A model generated the notes under the pieces. That model was not told where the DNA came from and did not search any database. It saw only the letters and a list, made by a program, of their open reading frames with translations. 64,000 bases of DNA from Acanthopleura granulata (taxonomy: Eukaryota > Mollusca > Polyplacophora > Chitonida > Chitonidae): contig JABBOT010000003.1 in assembly GCA_016165875.1 (NCBI GenBank), positions 27,732,983 to 27,796,982 of the forward strand. Direction: 5' to 3'. Both the position numbers and the translations under genes were made by a program. Positions 544 through 48,778 of the stretch are shown here, piece by piece (position 1 is the stretch's first letter; each line of letters opens with the position of its first letter).

Positions 544-3500
544 CTGTAACACAAACAACATGGATTCATTAAGCTCACTGGGGTTTAATATCATCTTCAG
601 ATATATTGTTAAGGACCTAAAATTTAGCTCCCCAAACCTGCATTTGTAGAGGTACATAAATGTCATAATACATTGGTCTTGGTGCTGAAATTTAAATTGC
701 AAACAAACTTATAAAGAAACAGTAAAATCTAAAATCAATAGAACTATCAGATTCAGAAAAAGATGCGCAACATAATCATAGACAAAACTTTAAGTCATTC
801 AGGGTATTTCACATCTGTGATGACATGCAGGTCTATAGAGAGACCTTGAGGGAAACCATTGCAAATACAAATTACCCGGTATAAAGCCACCTCAACAGCC
901 AAAATTGCAACAATGTCATATTTTTAATTAAATGACATTGGTAAATAAAGTTTAACTGAGCATCTTTATTAACATTTATTTCACGTGTTCAATTTGGACA
1001 AAACTGTTTTGACTCAACATCTAGATGTTGATAACATACCACCCCATTAAAACAGGTATCTTTTCTGATGGCTATTTCTTTGCACAGGAAAACAAAAATA
1101 CAGCAAAACAGGGAAACTGTGAGATCCTACCTGAGCGGCCCTCTCAACATAATCCACATAAGGTAATTCTTACTTGATTCCTTCCCCCCTTCCCCTGACC
1201 CCTGCATCAGAGCTCAGTATTTCATATTTGTCCAGAGATTGTCACACAAGATGACATTCTCACAAAATACCGGTGTGTTGCGTGGGTTTATGGCCTGATA
1301 TTTCGGCGAGAAGAGCAAAATATTGATCTTTGATACCCAATATTAGGCCGTAAACCCACGCAATATGCTGGTATGATGAATTCATCACAATGACGAGCAT
1401 CACCGGTGACTTTTGTTGACATTTTTGTCAAAATACGCCAAGTTCTTACAGGGGCTTTGCCACTGACTGAGCAACCGAGACTGATGTCACGGCTCACACA
1501 ATGAGAACAGCACAGACTAGGACCGGGGTGCTGATGGCACAGAGCAAAAAACACTTGCTTTAAATCGACTGCGAGATATTAACTTTTGATTCAATTTGCA
1601 CCGGTTTGCAATTTAACTGTGTCAAAAAGATGCTACGAGAAACTTTTCTACACGTTGTTGTTGTTGCTAACTACTGAATCATTAGAACTCTTAAGAGAAT
1701 AGAGGCAAGAAAAGTTACTGACTCGTACATTGCTGACAAGCATTGCTATCCTCCGGCGTAAGAATCCTTGACTCCATAGGGATACAGAAAAAATATCAAA
1801 GGTGCGAGACTGTACTGCTTGTTTGTTTTGTGAATACAGTAAACTATTCAAGGCAGATAGACCAATCACATGCGCAGAATTTTCTCTGAATTGAATCTAC
1901 TGATAATGAACAGTGTAAATTGTTCTGCTGCATGCATGAGGTTTCCAAATATGATGATGGGAAACAAGGACTCAAGTTTCATAGGCTTGAGAAGATTTCC
2001 ACTGTGTCAAAATGATCATCACAGCCTATCAATAAGACATAAAATATAACAAATAATTGCCACAAGACAGATCTAATATTGACGAAATGGCATAAAGCCA
2101 TAATCATTCATGAATAACAAATGAAATAAAATGTGAACTACCGGTACATTTACAAATAGTGTCAATGTCCACAACCCGAGCCTGAACTGTGAATCTGACC
2201 TGTGCGCCCCGCTAAAGGTGGGGCAGACTGGGATCTTCCACATAGAGGACAGGATATTGCAGCATTTCTGTAGGTATTTCAGGGCAGGTTCTGCGAGGTT
2301 CTCATCTGCCCCAGGTTCGGTTAATCCAGCATCACTGCCTGAGTCTGAGTCATCATCCAGGTCAGCCTGGAACTCTCCTGTAGTGGAGGAGAAAAAAAGA
2401 AAGAGGAGGAATATTTTTTCAAATGCTGCTCCAGTATAGTCTGAAAGAAATGAATTTCCAATGTTCACAGCTCCCTTTCATAAAACCTTGAAACACTTAC
2501 AGTGTATCTGAAGATGATATTTCTGTGATACAATATTTCATGGCTACTGTTACTAAAATGTAAAATGTTTCTGTTTTCATTTCTCATTATTACACACAAA
2601 CACAAAACACGCACGTAGCCCACAAACACAGCAAGAAAACTTTTACGGTCATATACACGTAGTTGTAAAATTATTAAAAGAAACTACATCTGTCTGCTTT
2701 GAACGAAACACTACACACACAGAATTTAAATGGAGCAGAATCCAAATAGGTCCCAATCCAAGCAAATCTAGCCCCGTAGCTGGCAGTAAGACATACAAAG
2801 TAAGTATGAGTTATGTGCATATTACAAGTGCAGTGTATAAAACTTATAAAACTGATCCTACACACTGAAGCCCTTACCTGGCCCTCTGACGTATTTCAGC
2901 AGGCAGAGAATACAGTCCACAGTCGCATTGGCAAACACATGCACATTGTCTGTTGACAGGAACACGTCAAATACATCCAACACCGCGGTCACGTGACGCT
3001 GACGTGCCTCATTCACCTCCTCGTTGGCCGTGTACTCGATTTTAACAGCTCGGAGTGCGGCAAACAAAGGGCGCCAGCCGGAGCGGATCTCAGCCGTGCA
3101 CGCCTCCACTAGCTCACATATAGAACACACAACCTGGAATGCATAACATAATGTGACTATTCAGAAACAATACAAGTGATCACTGTGCATGAGCACGCAT
3201 AAGAAATTAGCCATCTGCTCCAATGGGGTGTAAAGTTTTTGATCATGTGCTAAAATTATGCATGCAAGTAAGGTGGATGCCTTGCTTGCACACGACAACC
3301 AATCATGTCCCATCCATGATCCAGACGGTTGAGATCGGGGCTCATTGCAGGCCAAAGAATCAGGAGGCTGACAGGTGGTATGAGGAGAAGGGTTCAGGTT
3401 GTCATCATGGCACAAGGCAGACACACTCGATATTGACTTAAAATGGGCTCACTGCAGGCCACAGAATCAAGAGGCTGACAGGTGGTATGAGGAGAAGGGT

Positions 3501-6500
3501 TCAGGTTGTCATCATGGCACAAGGCAGACACACTCGATATTGACTTAAAACGGGCTCACTGTAGGCCACAGAATCAGGACGCTGACAGGTGGTATGAGGA
3601 GAAGGGTTCAGGTTGTCATCATGGCACAAGGCAGACACACTCGATACTGACTTAAAACGGGCTCACTGTAGGCCACAGAATCAGAAGGCTGACAGGTGGT
3701 ATGAGGAGAAGGGTTCAGGTTGTCATCATGGCACAAGGCCGACACACTCGATATTGACTTAAAATGGGCTCACTGTAGGCCACAGAATCAAGAGGCTGAC
3801 AGGTGGTATGAGGAGAAGGGTTCAGGTTGTCATCATGGCACAAGGCCGACACACTCGATACTGACTTAAAACGGGCTCACTGCAGGCCACAGAATCAAGA
3901 GGCTGACAGGTGGTATGAGGAGAAGGGTTCAGGTTGTCATCATGGCACAAGGCCGACACACTCGATATTGACTTAAAACGAGCTCACTGCAGGCCACAGA
4001 ATCAGGAGGCTGACAGGTGGTATGAGGAGAAGGGTTCAGGTTGTCATCATGGCCCAAGGCCGACACACTCGATACTGACTTAAAACGAGCTCACTGCAGG
4101 CCACAGAATCAAGAGGCTGACAGGTGGTATGAGGAGAAGGGTTCAGGTTGTCATCATGGCACAAGGCCGACACACTCGATACTGACTTAAAACGAGCTCA
4201 CTGCAGGCCACAGAATCAAGAGGCTGACAGGTGGTATGAGGAGAAGGGTTCAGGTTGTCATCATGGCACAAGGCCGACACACTCGATACTGACTTAAAAC
4301 GAGCTCACTGCAGGCCACAGAATCAAGAGGCTGACAGGTGGTATGAGGAGAAGGGTTCAGGTTGTCATCATGACACAAGGCAGACACACTCGATACTGAC
4401 TTAAAACGAGCTCACTGCAGGCCACAGAATCAAGAGGCTGACAGGTGGTATGAGGAGAAGGGTTCAGGTTGTCATCATGGCACAAGGCGGACACACTCGA
4501 TACTGACTTAAAACGGGCTCACTGTAGGCCACAGAATCAAGAGGCTGACAGGTGGTATGAGGAGAAGGGTTCAGGTTGTCATCATGGCACAAGGCGGACA
4601 CACTCGATACTGACTTAAAACGGGCTCACTGTAGGCCACAGAATCAAGAGGCTGACAGGTGGTATGAGGAGAAGGGTTCAGGTTGTCATCATGGCACAAG
4701 GCTGACACACTCGATATTGACTTAAAACGGGCTCACTGTAGGCCACAGAATCAGGAGGCTGACAGGTGGTATGAGGAGAAGGGTTCAGGTCGTCATCATG
4801 GCACAAGGCCGACACACTCGATATTGACTTATGAGATACCAAATGACTTTTTTCAACCACTGCTTCAACACCGCTCACTCCAGAAACATACTTGTATAGC
4901 CATTGTTTCACATCAAAACCAGTGATGACAGAAATGTGCATGTGTGTTATCATTAAAATACTTGTATTCCAATAATTTTCTCGCTTTTCATAATCCAAAG
5001 AATCTCACGGTTCACAACCAATCACAATTTCCACTCTTTTGATACAGAAGAACATTAATGGCATGTTTACAAAATCGCCACAGTTAAAACCAGGCACTTT
5101 GTGTATATATTAGCCAAAGCATTGATTTATGACATTCCCCTTCCCCGAAAAAAAAACAAAAAACACCTGATTATAGCCCCCTTATAACAAATAAAACTGT
5201 TCACATTATTTTCTACCTCATACTCACCTGATCTTGGACATCTCCATCACAGAGATCTAAACACAGCAGAGTCTCCAGGGTTTTACACAGCAGCTCGTTC
5301 ACATGGAAATGGGGTAATTCTGGAGAGTTACTGACCATGGCTGTGATGTAACCATGGATACAACTAACCGCCATCTTGGATATGTTCCTATCAATATGAC
5401 CTGCAGCCTGTAAATTAGAAAACAACACCAGCTTATAGGATGACGGCAACACACTTTCTGCTTATTTTATCAAAAACGAGTAATAAATATTAAATCATTC
5501 TGTATGTTCACATAGAAAAAATGTGTGAAACGTTCTCAAAAAATTCAGAAATTAGCATGAATTTACTAATTAAAATGACTGTCCTAACTGGCATTTAGCC
5601 ATTCCACAATATCTAAAACACTGACGCATTACACGTTGTTTGGAAATTAGTGAGCAAACCGTCCATTTACCTCAGCCAGATAAGGGGAGACAACTGTCCA
5701 AGCCCTCAGTAGGTGGAGCAGTGGCCTGCCACTGTGAAGTAGCCTCATCATCACATCCTGTAGACGGTACAGATGGAGGGCGTTAGTGGGCAGGTGACTG
5801 GCAGCTAGGACGACACCCTCATTACCATCCTCCCGCCTCTGAGATTTGGACAGCTGGATCTGGCTGGCATCACAGAGCTCTCCCAGAAACCCCAACAGAG
5901 CCCCCATATTCAGCTTGTTGGCAGCATCTTCAAACAGTCTGTAACATACATCACAAACTGTACATCAAACTACATAGCAAGTGTTTGCCTGTGTACATGT
6001 AGCATGTGTGTACATGGCAAAAAAAAACAATGACAACATATGAAGAACGAACAGTTAAAAATATGTGAATTCTAAGATTGTGGAAACCACTGCACTTCAC
6101 ATGCTGAGTTCACATTCACAAGACAAGAGTTCTATTAACCTTGCTACTACACTCAGTCTTAAAAAACCTCAGGTGAAAATGAAACAATTACTTATTTGAT
6201 TCTTGCATATAGCCATGCTTGGGAATATTTCACTTGAACTCTGGAAGTCTTATTCATTGGTGATGGAAACCGAAATGCCCCAGGTAAACCCCTGACCTTT
6301 GGCAAGTTACTGACAAACTTTTCCATGAGTGGCATATATATATGCATGCCACATTGGTGGAGGATGGGTGGTCCTAAATGGGTGTTACAACAGCACAAAT
6401 GGCCACCTGAGTGTTGTTCACCGCTTACTATCATGATAGCCCCACAAACAGTGAGAGGGTGGAATCTACAAATTTGTTGTCTAAATCCCAGGTCTGTGCT

Positions 6501-9500: not shown

Positions 9501-12500
9501 GCACTTAAAACATAGTGCTTGACATTATCTCAGTAGGAGAGTCAGTTATTCCTGTTGAAGATTTATTGCATTCCCACAACCATGCCTCACTGACTTAAAA
9601 GGAGAAGGCCAAACAGCCAAGTGTAACGTAAGTCATAGTTAAAAGAGTAAGGTTTTAAGATTTTAAAAACACCATCCGATAATTTTTTGGACGTACTCTG
9701 TAAACCATCTGCTTCATCTCTGTAAGCTCTCACAGCTGTCAGAGGACACCAACACTTTATTGACCCGAAGCTGGATAAATGACATGAATCAAGCTGGTCA
9801 CTCTAGCCTAGATCCTTCTCATCTGTATATGACATGCTGTTTGTGCAGCCAAAAGCTGCACACTGTCGCATCCTGCCAGCTCTTAGTTTTGGTCTGAACA
9901 CAGACAAAACAAGGTGCAGCAGCCAACTGTCTATAATCAAGCTGATTTCATATGTATAAGAAAAGTCTTGAGTACAGACAACAGATGGAATGGTAATGAG
10001 TTACCAGCCCGAATCATGTCACATCCTCTAGTCCTGCTTCAAATAATCCAGTGTCCTGATTGGTCAAAATTATTTTCACAGTTATGTTCCCCTTTACAAG
10101 GAGGTACATTTACTTATTATTTGCCACTGAGTATGTTCTACCTTGAAACTTCTTGTCTCGGAACTAAAAAAAAGCTAAAAACAATTTATTGGTTATTTTC
10201 AACTCTTCAAACCTTATTCTTTCACCACAAACGGCCCATATTTTCCTGGTCTTTTCCTATCATCATTCATACTCTTTACAAGAAAAGACAACAAAAAATA
10301 TTACCAAAGTTATTTCAGAAGAGGAGTCCATACAGACCTAAATGGGCATAGGCAATTCTTCATGACATGCTTGATAACTCTATAAATCACTTTTAATCTC
10401 GAATATTTACGAGGCCATATGATACGTCATTTTAGAGAAACCGGAAAGATGAGTTTCAGTACTAGGGGAGAGATACTCCTTTCTGTGTGAAGTGAGGTCC
10501 CCTTTAGTATTACAATCGAAGGCCACGCACTGTGGCATCCTGCTTGATACCTTGGAGAATAACCCGAATCATATTCTACTACCATTTTCTTACTGAAAAT
10601 GGCTTTAAATTATATTAGAACTGTCACGTACTCACAAGGGAAATAGCTGATTTAACACTACTTCTACATGGCAAAGTGGTGAACTAGGTATGGGTGACGT
10701 CAAAGGGGAAACAGATGTCTTCGCTGGTAGAAATATCTCACCTCTGATTGGTTAACATTGAGAGAATGGCAGCCTATTCGATTTTCCCCGCTTCAGAGTT
10801 TTTGCTAACTTTATCATGCATCACATAAAAAAAACTTATGTTTTTTGAACTATGAATAGAATTCTTTATCGATACATATATACATGTGGTTAAGTGTTGT
10901 CTTTTCTTTTAAGTACTATACACAGATTCTGTAAGCCATTCAGGCAGATAATAAAAGTTACATATCACAACGAAGGATGAGTTGTCTACCCGGTTAAATA
11001 TCTGAACTTGCACATCCAGAAACATGCTGTTATTCTTGTCACCCCACATCACTAGCCAATATTAAATTTTTGGTTTACCTCACTCCATATAACACTGTAA
11101 CCTGTGGAAAATCAAGCAACCAGCTGTGTAGCTGTGGTATGAAATAATGAAAAGTTGCTGTAACTCTTCAACTTAATTCAAGTTCTGTTTCGCTTAACGC
11201 AACATTCTTAAGACTTTTGAGGCTCTATGAATCCACCTAGCGTATCACATTTACACAATCCAGCAGAAAAAACAAATGATTCTGGAATAATGTTTTCAGA
11301 CGATTCCTGTGATGCATCACATGTATACACAGCTGACTTTTTCATATCCTCAAACTGACAAAACCTTGAGTCAAGAGTTCATTCCAACAACTGCCACTCT
11401 GCCTTTTGACCCAAGCCATACACAAAGCAGCCTAACAGATGGTCTTCACTACCAATGTCGTCTTCACTACCAATGTCATCAACACACCTGCTTCCACCTG
11501 CCTCCTGTTGCCTGCAGATGGGATGATTTCATCACATTGTTCATTACAAAGCAGTTGTCTGCCTTTGTCATGGCTTCCCAAGCCATCCAAATCTAAAAAT
11601 ATAAAACATGTGATGATAAATAACTGTAATACAATTCAATACAAAAGCATTCAAATAAACACATACATTCTGACGATACACGTAAATGCCTGATTACTGA
11701 AAGAAAAAGGAAAAACCAAATATTATAGCAATTTCATGTGGAACTGTGCCATCATATGTTGTAAACATGGGAAGACGAGGAAAAGATGAAAATTCGGCTT
11801 CATTTTCTCATTTTACTGACATGCATAAGAATACAAGAAAGTATTGTCCAGTCTTCGGCAGGTTGTATGTATAATATGAATGCACCTAACTGCTCCTGAG
11901 CTTCTAAGATAACCTCTGCATACACAACAAGGAAACAGATTCAGGCAAACAGCACTTAACTTTTTGATTTGATAGGATTTCCAGTATTAAAATTCAGAAA
12001 TTGCAATCTGTGTACAGGACATACTTCCAAAAATTCTTTACTGCCAATGCTAAAAAGGTTTCAAAATGTCTCAAGGGTATTTGAGCTAATGTTGCCCAGA
12101 CTGACATTACAGACCTGTGAGAAAGCTGATAAGGGGTACGTCACTGGTGGTTTCGATGTCTGGCACATAACCTGCCTCCACCAGAAAGTCTGTGGTGATG
12201 ACGAGTCGGTATAGCTCCGACAGCCAGGTGGGTGAGAGGAATAGCAGCAGTCCCGTCCCCAAGACGCTATCCACAAACCAGTCCTAAGGGCAGACAGGGC
12301 AATTAGCTTTAAGTCATGGAGTCCACACCTGAAGACTCAGAACCCAAGCGTTTTGAGAAAGCTTTATGATTCCTGCTAGGTTGACTGTAGGGTATAAGTA
12401 ATGAAGCAACTGTCATAAGAGTATGTCACTAAATCCATGCGAACACAATGAAAAATGTGTACTCAGGTTCACCTTGTGTGCCTTAAACATCAGTTAAGCC

Positions 12501-15500
12501 CTAAATACACACTGTAACGCATTGGCTTTAGTTCTTATCTCCTAGGTTTAGGGTTTAGGTGCCATGTGCTCTGGCAGTCTGCAATGGGTTATGCCCTTGT
12601 TGCTAAGCTTGGGCTAGGATCAGCATGTCAAATATGCTAAGCTTGTCAGCAAATAATATACATGCTACAGCCAGAAGACATGGCTGCTGCATATTTAATA
12701 TGATATACGCATGTGAAATAAAGAGGCTGTGTATGCACAAAGCTGACCTCACTCATGGGTGGTATGGAGGATGTTGTGTGAGGATAGCTTACCTCACTGA
12801 TGGGTGGTATGGAGGATGCTGTGTTAGGACAGCTTACCTCACTGATGGGTGGTATGGAGGATGCTGTGTCAGAATAGCTTACCTCATTGATGGGTGGTAT
12901 GGAGGATGCTGAGTTAGGACAGCTTACCTCACTGATGGGTGGTATGGAGGATGCTGTGTGAGGATAGCTTACCTCATCGATGGGTGGTATGGAGGATGCT
13001 GTGTCAGGACAGCTTACCTCATCGATGGGTGGTATGAAGAATGCTGTGTCAGGACAGCTTACCTCATCGATGGGTGGTATGAAGAATGCTGTGTCAGGAC
13101 AGCTTACCTCACTGATGGGTGGTATGAAGGATGCTGTGTCAGGACAGCTTACCTCATCGATGGGTGGTATGGAGGATGCTGTGTCAGGACAGCTTACCTC
13201 ATCGATGGGTGGTATGAAGAATGCTGTGTCAGGACAGCTTACCTCATCGATGGGTGGTATGAAGGATGCTGTGTCAGAATAGCTTACCTCACTGATGGGT
13301 GGTATGGGCGATGCTGTGTGAGGATAGTTTACCTCACTGATGGGTGGAATGGATGGTTCTGTGTTAGCATTGCTTACCTCACTGATGGGAGGTATGGATG
13401 GTTCTGTCTTAGCATTGCTTACCTCACTGATGGGTGGTATGGATGGTTCTGTCTTAGCATTGCTTACCTCACTGATGGGTGGTATGGAGGATGCTGTGTC
13501 AGAATAGCTTACCTCATCGATGGGTGGTATGGATGGTTCTGTCTTAGCATTGCTTACCTCACTGATGGGTGGTATGGAGGATGCTGTGTCAGAATAGCTT
13601 ACCTCATCGATGGGTGGTATGGAGGATGCTGTGTCACAATGGCTTACCTCACTGATGGGTGGTATGGATGGTTCTGTCTTAGCATTGCTTACCTCACTGA
13701 TGGGTGGTATGGAGGATGCTGAGTCAGGACAGCTTACCTCATCGATGGGTGGTATGGGGCATGCTGTGTGAGGATAGCTTACCTCATCGATGGGTGGTAT
13801 GGAGGATGCTGTGTCACATTGGCTTACCTCACTGATGGGTGGTATGAAGAATGCTGTGTCAGAATAGCTTACCTCACTGATGGGTGGTATGGATGGTTCT
13901 GTGTTAGCATTGCTTACCTCACTGATCGGTGATATGGATGGTTCTGTGTTAACATTGCTTACCTCACTGATGGGTGGTATGGAGGATTCCGCATCAGTAT
14001 AGAAGCCTGACAGCGACAGCTTCAAGTTTAGCCATAATGCTGATATGGTGGCCATATAAACCCCGTCTGCATTCAGTATCACATGTGACTGGTCTGTGTT
14101 CTCCTCCCAGGAATGCTGAGAACATAAATCTGCAACACAGAATAAGTGCAACTCAGGAGCCACTTACCTATTAGATACCCAATCTGGCCCCTTGGGATAT
14201 GCAAAAGCACATATCAGATATTGTGCAAGCCAACACAGAAATTAGCAAGGATTTTGGCTATATTTCAACACTGGAGGTGCAAATTTACAGTGTACATGGT
14301 GTATCATATTGGTGGATGGTAAGTGCATGATCTCCATGAAATGCGTGTTATACCACCTGAAAAGACCCTCTGTGCACTGATGCCCCAGCAACAAGGGAGG
14401 TGTGGAAAATCACGCATGCCATGAAGAAAACTTCAAGCCAAGAGCTGGCCTAACAGTTTATTTATTTATTTGACACTTGTTTAGTGCCTACTGAAGAGTT
14501 TTTCACTTTATATATGATGGCAGTCTATTTATGGAAGGCGATAACTGCCTGCCTTGCCTGGATTAATCACTGGTTTTCGGCAAGTTACTGACACACTTTC
14601 CCACACATGACATACAAGTATGCAAGCTCAGGACACTGGCTTAAAAATTCACCAAACTGATGAAAAAATGGCATGAATCAGTACTTAATACATGGCTTAC
14701 TCTGGCAGAAGTTGGAGGCAAACTTGACCAATGCCTCATCCACATCCCTCACCGAGTACTCCTGTAACAGGACAGGTAAGAACTTGGCCAGCACCTGTGA
14801 AAAGTCTTTGGCACTCTGGCGTTCCATGTCCTCGAACTTGGTCTTGAACATTTCGGCTCTTCTCTGAATCTGCAGATGTCTTTCTTCGTCCAGCTGAAGC
14901 TGGATCGCCTCGTGGACGTTCGGGTTCTGAAATGAACTGTCATCCGACGTTTCTTCGAAATCTTCATCGCTGACATCCCCTGTTATTCGCATCATTGTAA
15001 TACTGTTCCCTCCATTGACAGGCAAGTTATCAGGCTGAGGGTACGAGCCGTCAGGTAGTGCTTCATCCCCATCCCTGTGGGAGTCCTGGTCCTTCTCGCC
15101 CTCCGCAGCGAGATTAGGCTGGGTGCTGTCTCTGTCCCCGTCATTAACTCTCTGTTCACCTGTCTGTTCTGGTCGATGAGATGTTAGCTCTGAGGGCGTA
15201 TCACTGCTACTGGTTGTTTCCACCCTGATAAGTGGCACAGGTAGGTCTCCCACAGATATACGCTCACTCTGACCTGGTCACAAATATCGCCAGGTAAGGA
15301 CATACTGTAATTCTTCAACCTTTTCACATGTTTGCAAGTTTATTCAAAAATATTCTGAAAGCATTACTCTGTGATGACTGATAACATTATATCTTTTGTG
15401 TAGTCCTTAAACTGGCCAATACAACCAATGCAGTTTTGTTTCCAAAATCAAATTAAAAATGTGCAATAATTGCATTTAAATTGCCTTTTCATATGTGACA

Positions 15501-21500: not shown

Positions 21501-24500
21501 ATAATTAGCCTTCTAATACATTATCAACTTACCATGGAATACCAGCAGAAACATATATGTAACTTATAAACAGAAATAAATACCTGGAATTACCTTAAAC
21601 ACATGGATCTGATTTCATTTTTTATGCCCTTATGAGAATAAGATTTATCTTTACATTAATTTTCCTCCATGTATCATAATTTCTTTATTTGAAAACATGT
21701 ATTTGATTAGTGCTATACAGTGATCTAAAACTGCTCACCTATATTTACTTATTTCTTTATTCAATTGGTGTTTTACACTGTACTCAAGAATATTTCACTC
21801 TTTTCACCTATATTATAAATGTCAGGGTTATAGGTTACATCATAATTAATTTAAAACGTAATCAAACACATAGTAAGGTTAAAACCGGAACTTCAGAATG
21901 GTAAAATGAAAATACAAAGGAAATGAAAGAAAATTAAACAAAAAAAAAAAACAAGAAATTCCATTCCCACATATCAATTTGCTGCCTCACAGCACAAACT
22001 CTGAATGAAGTTACTTGTTACTTTTAAGACAGCCCCAGCAAGTAACTTAGATCTATTTCTGCTAAATTTAACCATCCCGGTTTTTAATAGGCTAAAGGGA
22101 TTAATAACAATATAGGTCAATGACATTTTACCCTCGTCAATTTTTTCGAATACCGACCGTAATTTGAATAAATTGTCACGTCTCAATTAAGTTTAGGGGT
22201 ATGTCCGCTTAGATGTAGTTGAACAGCATCCAGAGTCTGTTCTCTGTATGCAAATATTGCAAGTGACCTAAAATTTTGTCCATGTCTAAAACTGCTCATT
22301 TCTTCTCGAGTTCTTTTCACATTACAAAGTTGTTCTGAGGGTGATCTGGAAGGTTAGTAATGTCATTTTCAGCAGCAAAAGTAGTATTATATGACATTTA
22401 TTTACCTCCAAAAATGAGCTTTTTAGACACTTTTTAGACTCTAGGTCATTTTATACACTGTCTCAAATCCTTTAAATTAATAGAAACAGGCTTACAACAT
22501 GTATACAGCAACAACAACAACAAGACAGCAAGCTTACCCAGTTCTCCTCCGTGCTGCAGAGTTTCTCAGCAAAGCTAGCTAACATTTGGGTGATAGTGGC
22601 CTTACTGGCGCTCCTGACACTGGCACTACTGCAGGGATAAGTGTCAACCAACACCTGGGGAAGGCAGGTAGAATTGGGGGTCAGAGAGGATGAAGAAAGG
22701 ACAGGCAAACAGGCCCCGGGTTTACGAAGGATATTTCAGCCCTGTGAAATAGTGACGACATTGGGCAATAGCCGTCGTAAATGTTGCCATTATTTGTATT
22801 ACGATGGCACAAAAATGCTGTCCTACGAGATTTGCTGTGTACTTTGTGCTAAGTCACACTTACCTAAGTGCACTTCCTATCTTTAGAATATACGGAATAC
22901 TTAGTTAAGTGTGCTTCATGAAACTGGGACCAGAACCATTACACCTCTCCTCACAGCTTTGCATGAAAACTTTTTTCACCATCAAAATTATATCCTGTTG
23001 GAGGTCTATAAGGCAACATCATTTGAGACGACAAACTTTTCCTCCGCAACTGATGTTGCTTTGTGAAACTCAAACACAACCCAACGGTAATCGAGGTTTG
23101 CAGAGAAAAATCCTCCTACACTACGAAAACCAAAAGTATAAAAATCTTCCACTGAGCTGAGATGCAAACAGGGTGTAGGTATGTGTGGGTACTTCATCCA
23201 GATACCAAAACTGAGAGATATACTCGTCTGTAAATGATGAAGACTTTCTTTTCACCCGATTGGTAGAATTAACACCAAGCCCACCCGATCCCAAATACAG
23301 GGTTACTAAACCTGCAGTCTCTACCTTACTTGACCCACAGGGGGAGGGGACAAATCCCTGTTGGATCAGCTGACGCTGGTAGAACACCCCCAAGGTTTGG
23401 GTCACAGTGTTCACACAGGCTTTGCGGACTTCTTGCTTAGCCCCACTCAACAGAGTTTCAAAACACAGCTGAAAATGTCACAGCAAAGTCTTGACTGGGT
23501 GAGTCTTGAAATAGTGCTCGACTGTCATGACTTGTGTCTTCAAAGAACAATATCTTAGTAGGTTGTGTTTACACTGACACATGCTTGAAACCATGTCAAA
23601 TGAACTTAATTATTCAAACTTTCAGTCTTTCACATATACAGAAGGCATGAAGCAATTTCAAAGGTGTTTAAAAACAAACTACCTCAAGACAGTGCCAGCA
23701 TATTATAAACAGTAGTTCAGATTGGTTGTAAAGGTTCTATTTCAAGGCTTTTCCCAAGCCCAAGTTAAAGAAAACCCCCTGATTTTCCAAGCTTTCCAAA
23801 GCCTGGAAAAGTTGGAAAAATTCCAGGCTATCCATGGTTTTAAACGACCCATAAGAACCCTGTTATTTGTTCAACTCATGGAACCCGTCAAAGAGGAAAT
23901 CAATAGGGATCACAACACCAGTGTCTCAGCAAAGATTTTGATACAGTTTTTAAGACACTCATCTGCTTTATTTGCAACAATGAGACTGCAAACTGTATAA
24001 TCAGTCTTAATTATTTTAACAGAAGATACCATGTCATACCTGAGATATCCTGATGATGACTTTAGCATTCATACACCACACAGTTGTAAAACTCATATTC
24101 AGCAACACCTGCAATCAGAATGCTAATGATGATTACCACGTACAAGAAGATACATGTGCCTTTCCAAATAGTTGCCTTGGTCCTTTAATCACCTAAACTG
24201 ACAAACATTTTAACTGTTGAAAACTATGTTGATGCAAAGTAAGCCAACACTTACAAAACAAAACCAAATACATAAGATATCATCAAAAAACTCTTTGAAA
24301 TCTTCTCTGTAACTTCATGATTTCCACCTGAGCCTCTTCAGCCACAGAACGTTCAGATCACACTGTGTCTGACTTCTGCACAGGTAACCAGTGAATCTCT
24401 CTGTCTGCTTACCTTCATGGTTTCCACTTGAGCCCCATCAGTCAGAGAGGGTAAGGACCACACCTGCACAGGTAATCAGTGGTTCTCTCTGCTTACCGTC

Positions 24501-27500
24501 ATGATTTTCACCTGAGCCTCTTCAGCCAGATAGGGTAAGGACCACACTGTGTCTAACACCTGCACAGGTAATCAGTGGTTCTATCTATATACTTACCTTC
24601 ATGATTTCCACCTGAGCCTCTTCAGCCTGGGAGGGCAAGGACCACACTGCTGTGAGAACCTGCATAGGTAACCAGCGGTTTTCTCGCTCACTCTCCATAC
24701 TAGACTGGAACCTTTCATCCTTGAGCAGCAACTAAAAATAAGACAAAATCACAAGAACGTAAACAAGGCACAAAACACGTGGAATTTAACAACGGTCAAA
24801 TTAGCAATTACACACAACTTCTTCTTTTACACAGGATGCTGAATGGAGATATCATCCTTAGTAACACAGCAGAGATTAAATTTAAACCCAAGAATACAAC
24901 AATGATTGCTTAACATTCAACATCCTTTTGATGTTTCCAACTGCATACTGACTACACTCATTCTGCATGACTTCAGGATATTAAAAGTTCTCTCTGTGCT
25001 TTGGGTATTAATAGAGTTCTCTAACTTCAGATTTTTCTGTACGTTTTGATATTTTGCTTTTTCCTCAAAACAGAAAGAAAACAGTAATGATGGATAGCCT
25101 GTATTTATGCTACAAAAACTGAAGCTGAAACACAGGTGTCAGCACTCAAAGAACTGTTAGTTTAGCATAGCCAACACTACAGGATACACCGTATACTATG
25201 ACCATCTACGACCCAAGAAAATCTGCTAACGTATTCGACCACTGACAGGCCATACAACTCCTATGGGCAACCCTGGTCTCGGAAATAACCTATAAAAACA
25301 TTTGATATGGATAGCGCAGCATGGGATTTCCGGACGTCGGCTGATTGCTTGAAGATTCGTACAGTTATGTACACCTGTAACTGAACGTGCTTGATGAGAA
25401 GATTTTGTTTCAGGATAACTGTTTGTTCTGAAAAGAGCAGTTGGGTAGTGGTTGTTGTTGTTCATTTACTGTCAATTCTGTTGTCGTAACTTCCCAGTAT
25501 AAAGCCTGTTACCGGAGAAGGTATACTCACAAGGAATTTCCAGTCCCTGCTTCTCAACATGTGATTGTCTTTTCTTTGATGAAGTGATTTTGCATTCAAT
25601 ACTGAGACCTTTCAAATAGCAATGGAATTCAGCAAAAGCCATCGTAAATGCTGCTGTTACCTGGATTACGAAGACAAAAAAATGCCGTCGTACAAGATAT
25701 GCTGTGAATGACTTGATGCTGAATATTTGCTTTTCGCAGTGGTCTCTAGAAAAAAAAGCAGGAGTAAAGTGGTACACTGGCCACAACAGTCGCTCCCCCG
25801 CTGTGGCTATCTTTAGAAGGTACAAGCAGAAACAGTGATTTAAATGGTGAAGGCTCAGAAAGTTGAAAAATGGGGACTTCCGTCTATGAAGTATGAAGTG
25901 GATGAGGACAGTTTTGCATGCACTCAGAAAAAGCCTGAATATATTCTAAAGATATAGTAGGTCTGTAAAGTAGATCTCGAATTTGATGGAACTGCTCTCG
26001 ATGAGGTCTGCGTTTGTGTCACGCAATCTTACCTGTATTCAAAATTGACGACAATGAAAATTTTTATGCCCGTGTGGGCTGCAAGATGAAGAATGAAGTG
26101 GAAACTACAATGAAAACATCACAGTTTTCTAGAAGTTTTCGATACTAGAACACCCGGGCACTTCAGGGTCAAGACTTGGTTACGAGACTTCTCAAAATGG
26201 CTGTAAATAGTAAGCCGTTTGAAGTTCTCATGGTCAATCTGATCACAAGGCGTCCAGTTAATTAGTTTCATCAGTAAAGGTAGTAAATTAAGACAGGAGT
26301 CTAGATTCAACCGGAAATGGGTAAATAAAGTGAGCTGAAGTGACACTTTGAGTTCAGAGATCTGCAGCGATTTTTCTTCAGTATGGGTTGCGATGTGACT
26401 TCCCGACGGAATTTATATTTGCCCTCATCAAGTGAGACACCACGCATTTTCACCAACTTATTTTCAGTTACCGTACCACCAGATGAAACACTGACCAAAC
26501 CTTGCAACCAACTATATAAACACACCAGTGTGCTTGATGACACATGAAAGCAAAAAAACCATCACGTAATGACCAAGTTCAACTGAGAAGCAAGCTACTT
26601 TTTCAGCCATGCCACCGTGTAACAAGGGAAATAAATAGTTGTTTGAAACAACAACAACATGAGGAATGCCACGTCGGTATAACAGTAATCCCGTATACAT
26701 TTCAAAAGGCCACTTACGAAAAGTAATATAGACTACAGCTACAATTAATCTCTAGTGTGGAATTCTGTGGGCTTAATTAAACCGTCTCTTTGATTGGAGG
26801 GGCCCTCCATCAAAGGCAGGGGTTTCCTGAACTGTCTGCAGCACCCCTTCTGTGATCAAACTCACTACGAGCCCGTGAGTCGAGTGACCAATAAGGTGCA
26901 GTCTTCGGTCGTAAATTGTCATAGTATACGGTGCATGTATGTGCATGAGTATCCTGTCCAGTTTGGTGCTGACTGAACTTTTATTTGAATACAGATCAAT
27001 CCCCAGCCGGTTCAATACCCACGACGTTAAAAATGGTACTTGCTGCTGCCTTGTTTTGTATTCAGTGCTGGGAGGTTAGAGCGAGAAAACAGGGTTGGTT
27101 GGACCAGTGTCAATGTGACATGACTGGGTGGGGTGTATGCCTGGTGTCTTCGGTATGACGTTCCACTGGCAGCAGCACTTTGGTGGCATGAAGGCACAGT
27201 ATATACATTCTAAGGACTCCTCGTCGAAACGTTGACTGAAAAACTGTACAACGTAAAATCCCAAGCACACATACATACATATATGACAAACCCTAATCAC
27301 TTACCCTGATGCCTGTGACAGCGTGGGAGGAGAGCTTGTTACTGTGTGACTCCAGGGACAGCTGGAATGTCTCCAGGCACTTCTCTCTCAGCTCATACAC
27401 AGGGGTCTGGCTTATGGCCTCCTTGTTCTTTAGAAGATCTGAAAAGAAAACCAACTTTTTTATTTTTTGTTTGACTGGTATTTTACGCCATACTGAAGAA

Positions 27501-35226: not shown

Positions 35227-48778
<13,552 letters not shown>

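What the first reader, a model, noticed from the sequence alone, without database searches (positions are those of the whole stretch)
12741..13985. An exon-end splice donor amplified 28 times, all in frame
The junction of ARFGEF3 exon 15 (last codons plus first intron bases) has become a 45-bp minisatellite. Every one of 28 units keeps TGAG|GT, and 26 read GAG|GTAAGC. The unit is 15 codons, each donor is phase 0, and exon 16 starts in phase 0. One exon could therefore end at 28 alternative donors, giving a protein with 0 to 27 extra 15-residue units inside the Sec7-like region. I know of no described gene with such a ladder of donors. The structure is seen directly; its use is inference.
Basis: partly seen in the sequence, partly recalled or inferred. 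Interest (0 to 1): 0.92.

Follow-up and report, generated by a model that had tools for sequence, protein, structure and literature searches.

The report
In-frame minisatellite copying a splice donor
In a chiton gene, the end of one exon together with its splice signal has been copied 27 times in a row; the copies are real and stay in frame, but similar arrays are known in amphioxus and in a human gene, and the cell most likely uses mainly the first signal.

Summary
On the minus strand, 28 GAG|GT junctions lie at exact 45-bp steps from 13963 to 12748; 26 of 28 read GAG|GTAAGC, and the phase-0 frame is open through all 27 units. The gene is ARFGEF3/BIG3 of a chiton; the best relative is Liolophura sinensis, 87% identical.

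Donor-spanning minisatellites are already described: amphioxus "mirages" (PMC3087553) and the human ABCA7 VNTR, whose 25-bp unit begins with the exon-18 donor and whose second donor is sometimes used (PMC5954066). Minigenes with two identical donors 52 nt apart used only the upstream one under exon definition (PMC9225289), a similar layout. The predicted L. sinensis protein has no extra unit; of 120 listed relatives, 112 align across the site with at most 9 extra residues, and one (P0023) has 67 unrelated ones. The units show no protein-level constraint. Exon 3 has a second, out-of-frame donor duplication.

Best reading: a boundary minisatellite, mostly intronic, spliced mainly at 13963. Unexplained: donor columns vary less than the rest (p about 0.01). 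No transcripts were seen.

The parts
13963..14129 (-). ARFGEF3/BIG3 coding exon 14 (167 nt) with its own donor GAG|GTAAGC at 13963
   Evidence: tblastn of the predicted Liolophura sinensis protein P0001 and splice-site scan
12748..13962 (-). Array of 27 complete 45-bp units (6 bp intron start, GTAAGC in 26 of 27, + 39 bp relative of the exon end), each ending in GAG before the next GT
12745..12750 (-). 28th junction, GAG|GTC, the weak distal donor at the edge of the array (last exon-like base 12748)
12284..12747 (-). Remainder of intron 14 after the array, down to the acceptor of exon 15
12115..12283 (-). Coding exon 15, starting in phase 0 (DWFVDSVLG...)
14701..15274 (-). Coding exon 13; intron 13 is 14130-14700 (571 nt)
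24313..24731 (-). Exon 3 of the same gene and three further copies of its 3' end; copies end at 24597 (the exon itself), 24497, 24413 and 24313; three of four keep GT; reading on past 24597 meets a stop after three codons

Best explanation
The array is a minisatellite that arose by tandem duplication of the last 39 bp of ARFGEF3 exon 14 plus the first 6 bp of the following intron in a chiton lineage. It works like the boundary-spanning arrays called mirages in amphioxus. In most transcripts exon 14 ends at the exon-proximal donor 13963, the whole array is removed with intron 14, and the protein has no extra unit. Minor use of the next donor or donors would add 15 residues per unit, in frame because the unit is 45 bp. 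Shown: the sequence structure, the frame, and a predicted orthologue protein without a unit. Inferred: dominance of the first donor, the duplication mechanism, and any leak to later donors.
For: The unit is exon end plus intron start. The predicted L. sinensis protein reads straight from exon 14 to exon 15. Of 120 listed relatives (of 268 found), 112 align across the junction; 104 have no residue inserted in the aligned stretch, 4 have one, and one each has 2, 5, 6 and 9. Flanking introns are 571 nt and 509-1679 nt, above the 250 nt that PMC9225289 gives as the switch to exon definition, where its five minigenes with two equal donors 52 nt apart used the upstream one exclusively (passages). 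Mirages are reported not to interfere with regular splicing (PMC3087553, PMC3902484 passages). No protein-level constraint in the units: 5 synonymous against 42 non-synonymous changes, where 26.6% synonymous is expected. The same gene has a second donor duplication that cannot be read in frame, so such copying does not depend on coding use.
Against: No transcript was examined. The donor's nine columns have one variable column against 22 of 36 elsewhere (Fisher p 0.0098), which neutrality does not obviously predict. 26 of the 28 donors score the same on an approximate matrix, above 17 of 22 other donors of the gene. The proximity rule comes from human data, and outside the minigenes it is partial: PMC9225289 finds the upstream donor preferred in 60% of human events with near-equal strength, and the downstream donor in about 60% when strength is not controlled. 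The L. sinensis DNA was not seen, so it may lack the array, and its protein is a database prediction. P0023 has 67 extra residues at the site.
Confidence: 0.68

Rival explanations
1. Working donor ladder: several donors of the array are used at appreciable levels, giving proteins with 0 to 27 extra 15-residue units in the degenerate Sec7 region.
For: 26 of 28 donors identical and fairly strong; frame open throughout; the donor is the least variable 9-column stretch of the unit (tied rank 1 of 45), with 1 of 9 columns variable against 22 of 36 elsewhere. In human ABCA7, retention of one unit of a comparable array is seen in some transcripts.
Against: Predicted orthologue without units; at most 9 extra residues in the 112 of 120 listed relatives aligning across the site; no protein constraint; equal-donor minigenes use the upstream donor. 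Two protein searches with the repeat found nothing, but they are weak: could only see proteins of about 278-884 residues, and one search failed to recover even P0001.
Confidence: 0.12
2. Length-dependent splicing modifier: the array stays intronic, but its many donor-like sites or its length change the efficiency of intron 14 removal or cause exon skipping, with copy number varying between animals, as reported for ABCA7.
For: ABCA7 VNTR length goes with more exon 19 skipping and lower expression (PMC5954066 passages). Donor sequence is retained although the units otherwise diverge.
Against: No length variants or expression data seen here. In ABCA7 the paper suggests splice-factor motifs in the unit as the cause, and retention of one unit did not change with VNTR length.
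Confidence: 0.13
3. Whole-array exonisation: under an intron-proximity rule the last good donor (12793) is favoured, giving a 1337-nt exon and 26 extra units.
For: Frame open to the end; 509-nt remaining intron; classical work favours the donor nearest the acceptor (as told in PMC9225289).
Against: Very long exon; exon-definition data point the other way; none of the 112 relatives aligning across the site shows it.
Confidence: 0.03
4. Assembly artefact, with copy number inflated or units mis-joined.
For: Reads could not be examined; PMC3087553 reports that one amphioxus mirage appears wrongly assembled in the draft genome.
Against: 21 of 27 units distinct and an exact 45-bp register.
Confidence: 0.04

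Closest known systems
Amphioxus mirages (Adh3, globins BflGb6 and BflGb9, troponin C, PGBD5)
   Same: Minisatellite-like tandem copies that span an exon-intron boundary, many retaining AG/GT signals; reported not to interfere with regular splicing (PMC3087553, PMC3902484, passages read; the Adh3 and troponin C originals not read).
   Different: Cephalochordate, not mollusc. Units given there are 10-72 bp (Adh3), 150-160 and 157 bp (globins), 60 and 108 bp (PGBD5), with 6 and 3 copies in two BflGb6 haplotypes; the passages I read mention no in-frame, phase-0 array of this many donors.
Human ABCA7 intron-18 VNTR
   Same: 23.7 units in the reference (about 12 to 427 in people), lying directly against exon 18 and including its donor; the consensus unit begins with the donor GT; retention of one unit is observed (PMC5954066, passages read).
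   Different: 25-bp unit, not a multiple of three, so a retained unit shifts the frame; each unit begins at the donor GT, whereas here 39 of the 45 bp are relatives of the exon end.
Intron gain by tandem duplication of AG/GT proto-splice sites (Rogers model)
   Same: Tandem copies carrying AG|GT in a coding gene (as told in PMC3087553).
   Different: Here the unit ends score poorly as acceptors (median -6.2 against 3.3 for 17 acceptors of the gene, approximate matrix), so splicing within the array looks unlikely.
Epstein-Barr virus W repeats (EBNA-LP); recalled, not tested
   Same: Repeat copy number gives a ladder of in-frame protein lengths through splicing.
   Different: There whole exons inside repeats of about 3 kb are repeated, not a single donor.

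Membership tests
Mirage-type boundary minisatellite | Tandem repeat whose unit spans an exon-intron boundary | tested here: met
   Unit = 39 bp relative of exon 14 end + 6 bp of intron start
Mirage-type boundary minisatellite | Copies retain splice signals | tested here: met
   28 of 28 GAG|GT, 26 of 28 GAG|GTAAGC
Mirage-type boundary minisatellite | Regular splicing not disturbed | not testable with these tools
   No transcripts of this species; the predicted L. sinensis protein without units is only suggestive
Mirage-type boundary minisatellite | Copy-number instability between alleles or tissues | not testable with these tools
   One haplotype only
Mirage-type boundary minisatellite | Occurrence in cephalochordates, where the term was coined (a fact of reports so far, not of structure) | tested here: not met
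   Best relative is a chiton, Liolophura sinensis; so it is said to work like a mirage, not filed as one
ABCA7-type donor VNTR | Array starts at the authentic donor and repeats it | tested here: met
   First unit starts at 13962, directly after exon 14
ABCA7-type donor VNTR | Transcripts using the second donor, length-dependent exon skipping | not testable with these tools
   No RNA data
Alternative-donor ladder producing protein variants | More than two donors used at appreciable level | not testable with these tools
   No RNA data; indirect evidence against
ARFGEF3/BIG3 | Orthologous protein along the part of the gene in the window | tested here: met
   1079 of 1229 aligned positions identical to the predicted L. 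sinensis BIG3-like protein; 1214 of its 2156 residues covered at E up to 1e-5, the window ending inside the gene

The most novel reading that the evidence does not exclude
The spliceosome uses many of the identical donors stochastically, so that one exon yields a graded set of ARFGEF3 proteins with 15-residue steps in the degenerate Sec7 region, and selection keeps the donor sequence, but not the peptide, in every unit.
Probability: 0.1. Interest if true: 0.82.

Novelty: new variant of a known kind. Interest (0 to 1): 0.42.

Why it matters
It adds a mollusc case to boundary-spanning minisatellites (my paper searches, and others, listed none, but they cover open-licence papers only). It offers a natural test of how the spliceosome chooses among 28 evenly spaced, in-frame donors, 26 of them identical: because each choice is translatable, it can be read in transcript or protein length. 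A second donor duplication in the same gene hints that such events may be common in this lineage.

Tried and rejected
Amphioxus as the host: my first guess from the mirage literature, rejected when the best protein relative proved to be a chiton, with Branchiostoma at 39-42%. Coding selection on the units: not supported. Open frame as evidence of function: rejected, since the probability of no stop in 47 changes is 0.56. Splicing within the array: unit ends score poorly as acceptors (median -6.2) and 16 internal CAG|TGAG sites score a median of 0.1, against a median of 3.3 for 17 acceptors of the gene (18 of 25 exons were given, one failed because my coordinate missed the AG). The donor comparison used 22 of the 24 other exons; exons 11 and 19, whose edges were unsure, were left out. 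The splice matrices are approximate and recalled. The 47 changes come from a minimum spanning tree, so conversions count as mutations and its donor test (1 of 47 against 9.4 expected, p 0.00036) is overstated; the column test (p 0.0098) is the safer one, and it assumes equal mutability. Two searches for proteins containing the repeat found nothing but are weak: one search excluded full-length proteins by length, and one search did not recover P0001. Six of 120 listed relatives gave no match to the junction region. Two gastropod proteins end their match exactly at the end of exon 14: P0022 lacks the residues of the next exon, and P0023 carries 67 residues between the matched pieces that are not 15-residue repeats and look to me like retained intron.

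Literature searches for a donor ladder, mirages or a mollusc case: (open-licence PMC only); one search was for chiton genomes, of which PMC12005716 passages were seen and gave nothing on this. PMC8724738 passages were seen and not used. Other papers in those lists were seen as listings only.

Full report
What is there. The minus strand of 12741-13987 is a 45-bp minisatellite of 27.7 copies. Starting from the end of coding exon 14 of an ARFGEF3/BIG3 gene, 28 GAG|GT junctions follow at exactly 45-bp spacing, with last exon-like bases at 13963, 13918 and so on to 12748. 26 of 28 read GAG|GTAAGC; the others are GTAAAC (13333) and GTCAGC (12748, the distal edge). Each unit is 6 bp of intron start followed by a 39-bp relative of the exon end; units differ from the exon's own last 39 bp at 5 to 11 positions and 21 of 27 are distinct. 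The phase-0 frame is open across all 27 units.

Gene and organism. A protein joined from window exons finds a predicted Liolophura sinensis BIG3-like protein at 87% identity; next in score is a scallop at 50% over the same length (some lower-scoring rows have higher identity over part of the query, for instance 68% over 36%). So the window is from a chiton close to, but not, that species. By tblastn 1079 of 1229 aligned positions are identical, covering 1214 of 2156 residues. Exon 14 (14129-13963) and exon 15 (12283-12115) are adjoined in the L. sinensis protein as SSIPPISE|DWFVD, with no extra unit. In the relative P0010 the Pfam Sec7 match (525-639) contains the junction near residue 612; P0001 itself has no Sec7 match.

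Relatives at the junction. Of 268 proteins found, 120 were listed and examined; 114 match the region (E below 1e-5) and 112 align across the junction: 104 with no residue inserted in the aligned stretch, 4 with one, and one each with 2, 5, 6 and 9. The list is redundant (many pig entries). The remaining two, both gastropods, end their match exactly at the end of exon 14: P0022 lacks the residues of the next exon and P0023 has 67 unrelated residues between its matched pieces. This suggests a conserved intron position and gene-model trouble there; that is inference.

Is the protein reading maintained? Along a minimum spanning tree of the distinct units there are 47 changes: 5 synonymous and 42 non-synonymous in the open frame, where a random change would be synonymous in 26.6% of cases. 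The chance of no stop in 47 random changes is 0.56. So neither the amino-acid sequence nor the open frame shows constraint.

Is the donor maintained? Eight of nine donor columns are invariant against 14 of 36 others (Fisher p 0.0098). This is the one result that favours functional donors. It assumes equal mutability of columns and was tested because the finding pointed to the donor. On an approximate, recalled donor matrix, 26 of the 28 junctions score 6.3, above 17 of 22 other donors of this gene; the two exceptions score 3.0 and 2.0.

A second case in the same gene. Of 50 exon boundaries tested (25 exons, some edges approximate), two have local tandem copies, both donors: exon 14 and exon 3. 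At exon 3 the exon end recurs at 24497, 24413 and 24313, with GT kept in three of four counting the exon itself; reading on past 24597 meets a stop after three codons. Donor duplication here therefore does not depend on a usable frame.

Known precedents. PMC3087553 and PMC3902484 (passages) describe amphioxus mirages, tandem copies of exon-intron boundaries, and hold that regular splicing is not disturbed, though PMC3087553 adds that the copied signals could act as cryptic sites. PMC5954066 (passages) describes a human ABCA7 VNTR whose first two bases are the exon-18 donor, 23.7 units in the reference, with transcripts that retain one unit. PMC9225289 (passages) reports five minigenes with flanking introns of 365 nt and two identical donors 52 nt apart, all using the upstream donor exclusively; across human events of near-equal strength the upstream donor is preferred in 60%, and without that filter the downstream one in about 60%. 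Here the flanking introns are 571 nt and 509-1679 nt, so the exon-definition rule predicts use of 13963. That transfer from human cells to a chiton is inference.

Age. Codon 6 of the unit is Thr in 25 of 27 units and Ser in two; the L. sinensis protein also has Thr there, while this species' exon has Ala. This single-site hint suggests the array was seeded before that exon change; it is inference.

Verdict. A real, well-ordered boundary minisatellite, in frame by virtue of its 45-bp unit, most likely removed as intron with splicing mainly from the first donor. A working ladder is possible; the identical donors and the donor-column result are in its favour. New variant of a known kind.

Noticed in passing
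24313-24731: A second donor-spanning tandem duplication in the same gene (exon 3), out of frame; together with exon 14 this makes two of 50 boundaries tested.
   Followed up: partly
3338-4831: A 107-bp minisatellite of 14 copies, 97% matches, inside the intron between the exons at 5407-5228 and 3133-2878 and not touching either exon.
   Followed up: no
12741-13985, plus strand: 18 of 27 units carry four GG tracts with loops of 1-4 bases (a two-layer G-quadruplex motif) on the template strand; such motifs are linked to minisatellite instability (recalled). No control was run.
   Followed up: no
35230-41369, minus strand: An ezrin/radixin/moesin-type gene lies upstream in the same orientation: of six ORFs scanned, one matches ERM_C, two FERM_M and two FERM_C (both FERM_C matches below Pfam's cut-off), and two match nothing.
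   Followed up: partly
P0023 (Nucella lapillus) residues 792-858; P0022 (Lottia gigantea) after residue 703: Gene models of two gastropods lose the match exactly at the end of the homologous exon, one with 67 extra residues and one lacking the next exon, which suggests a conserved intron position.
   Followed up: partly
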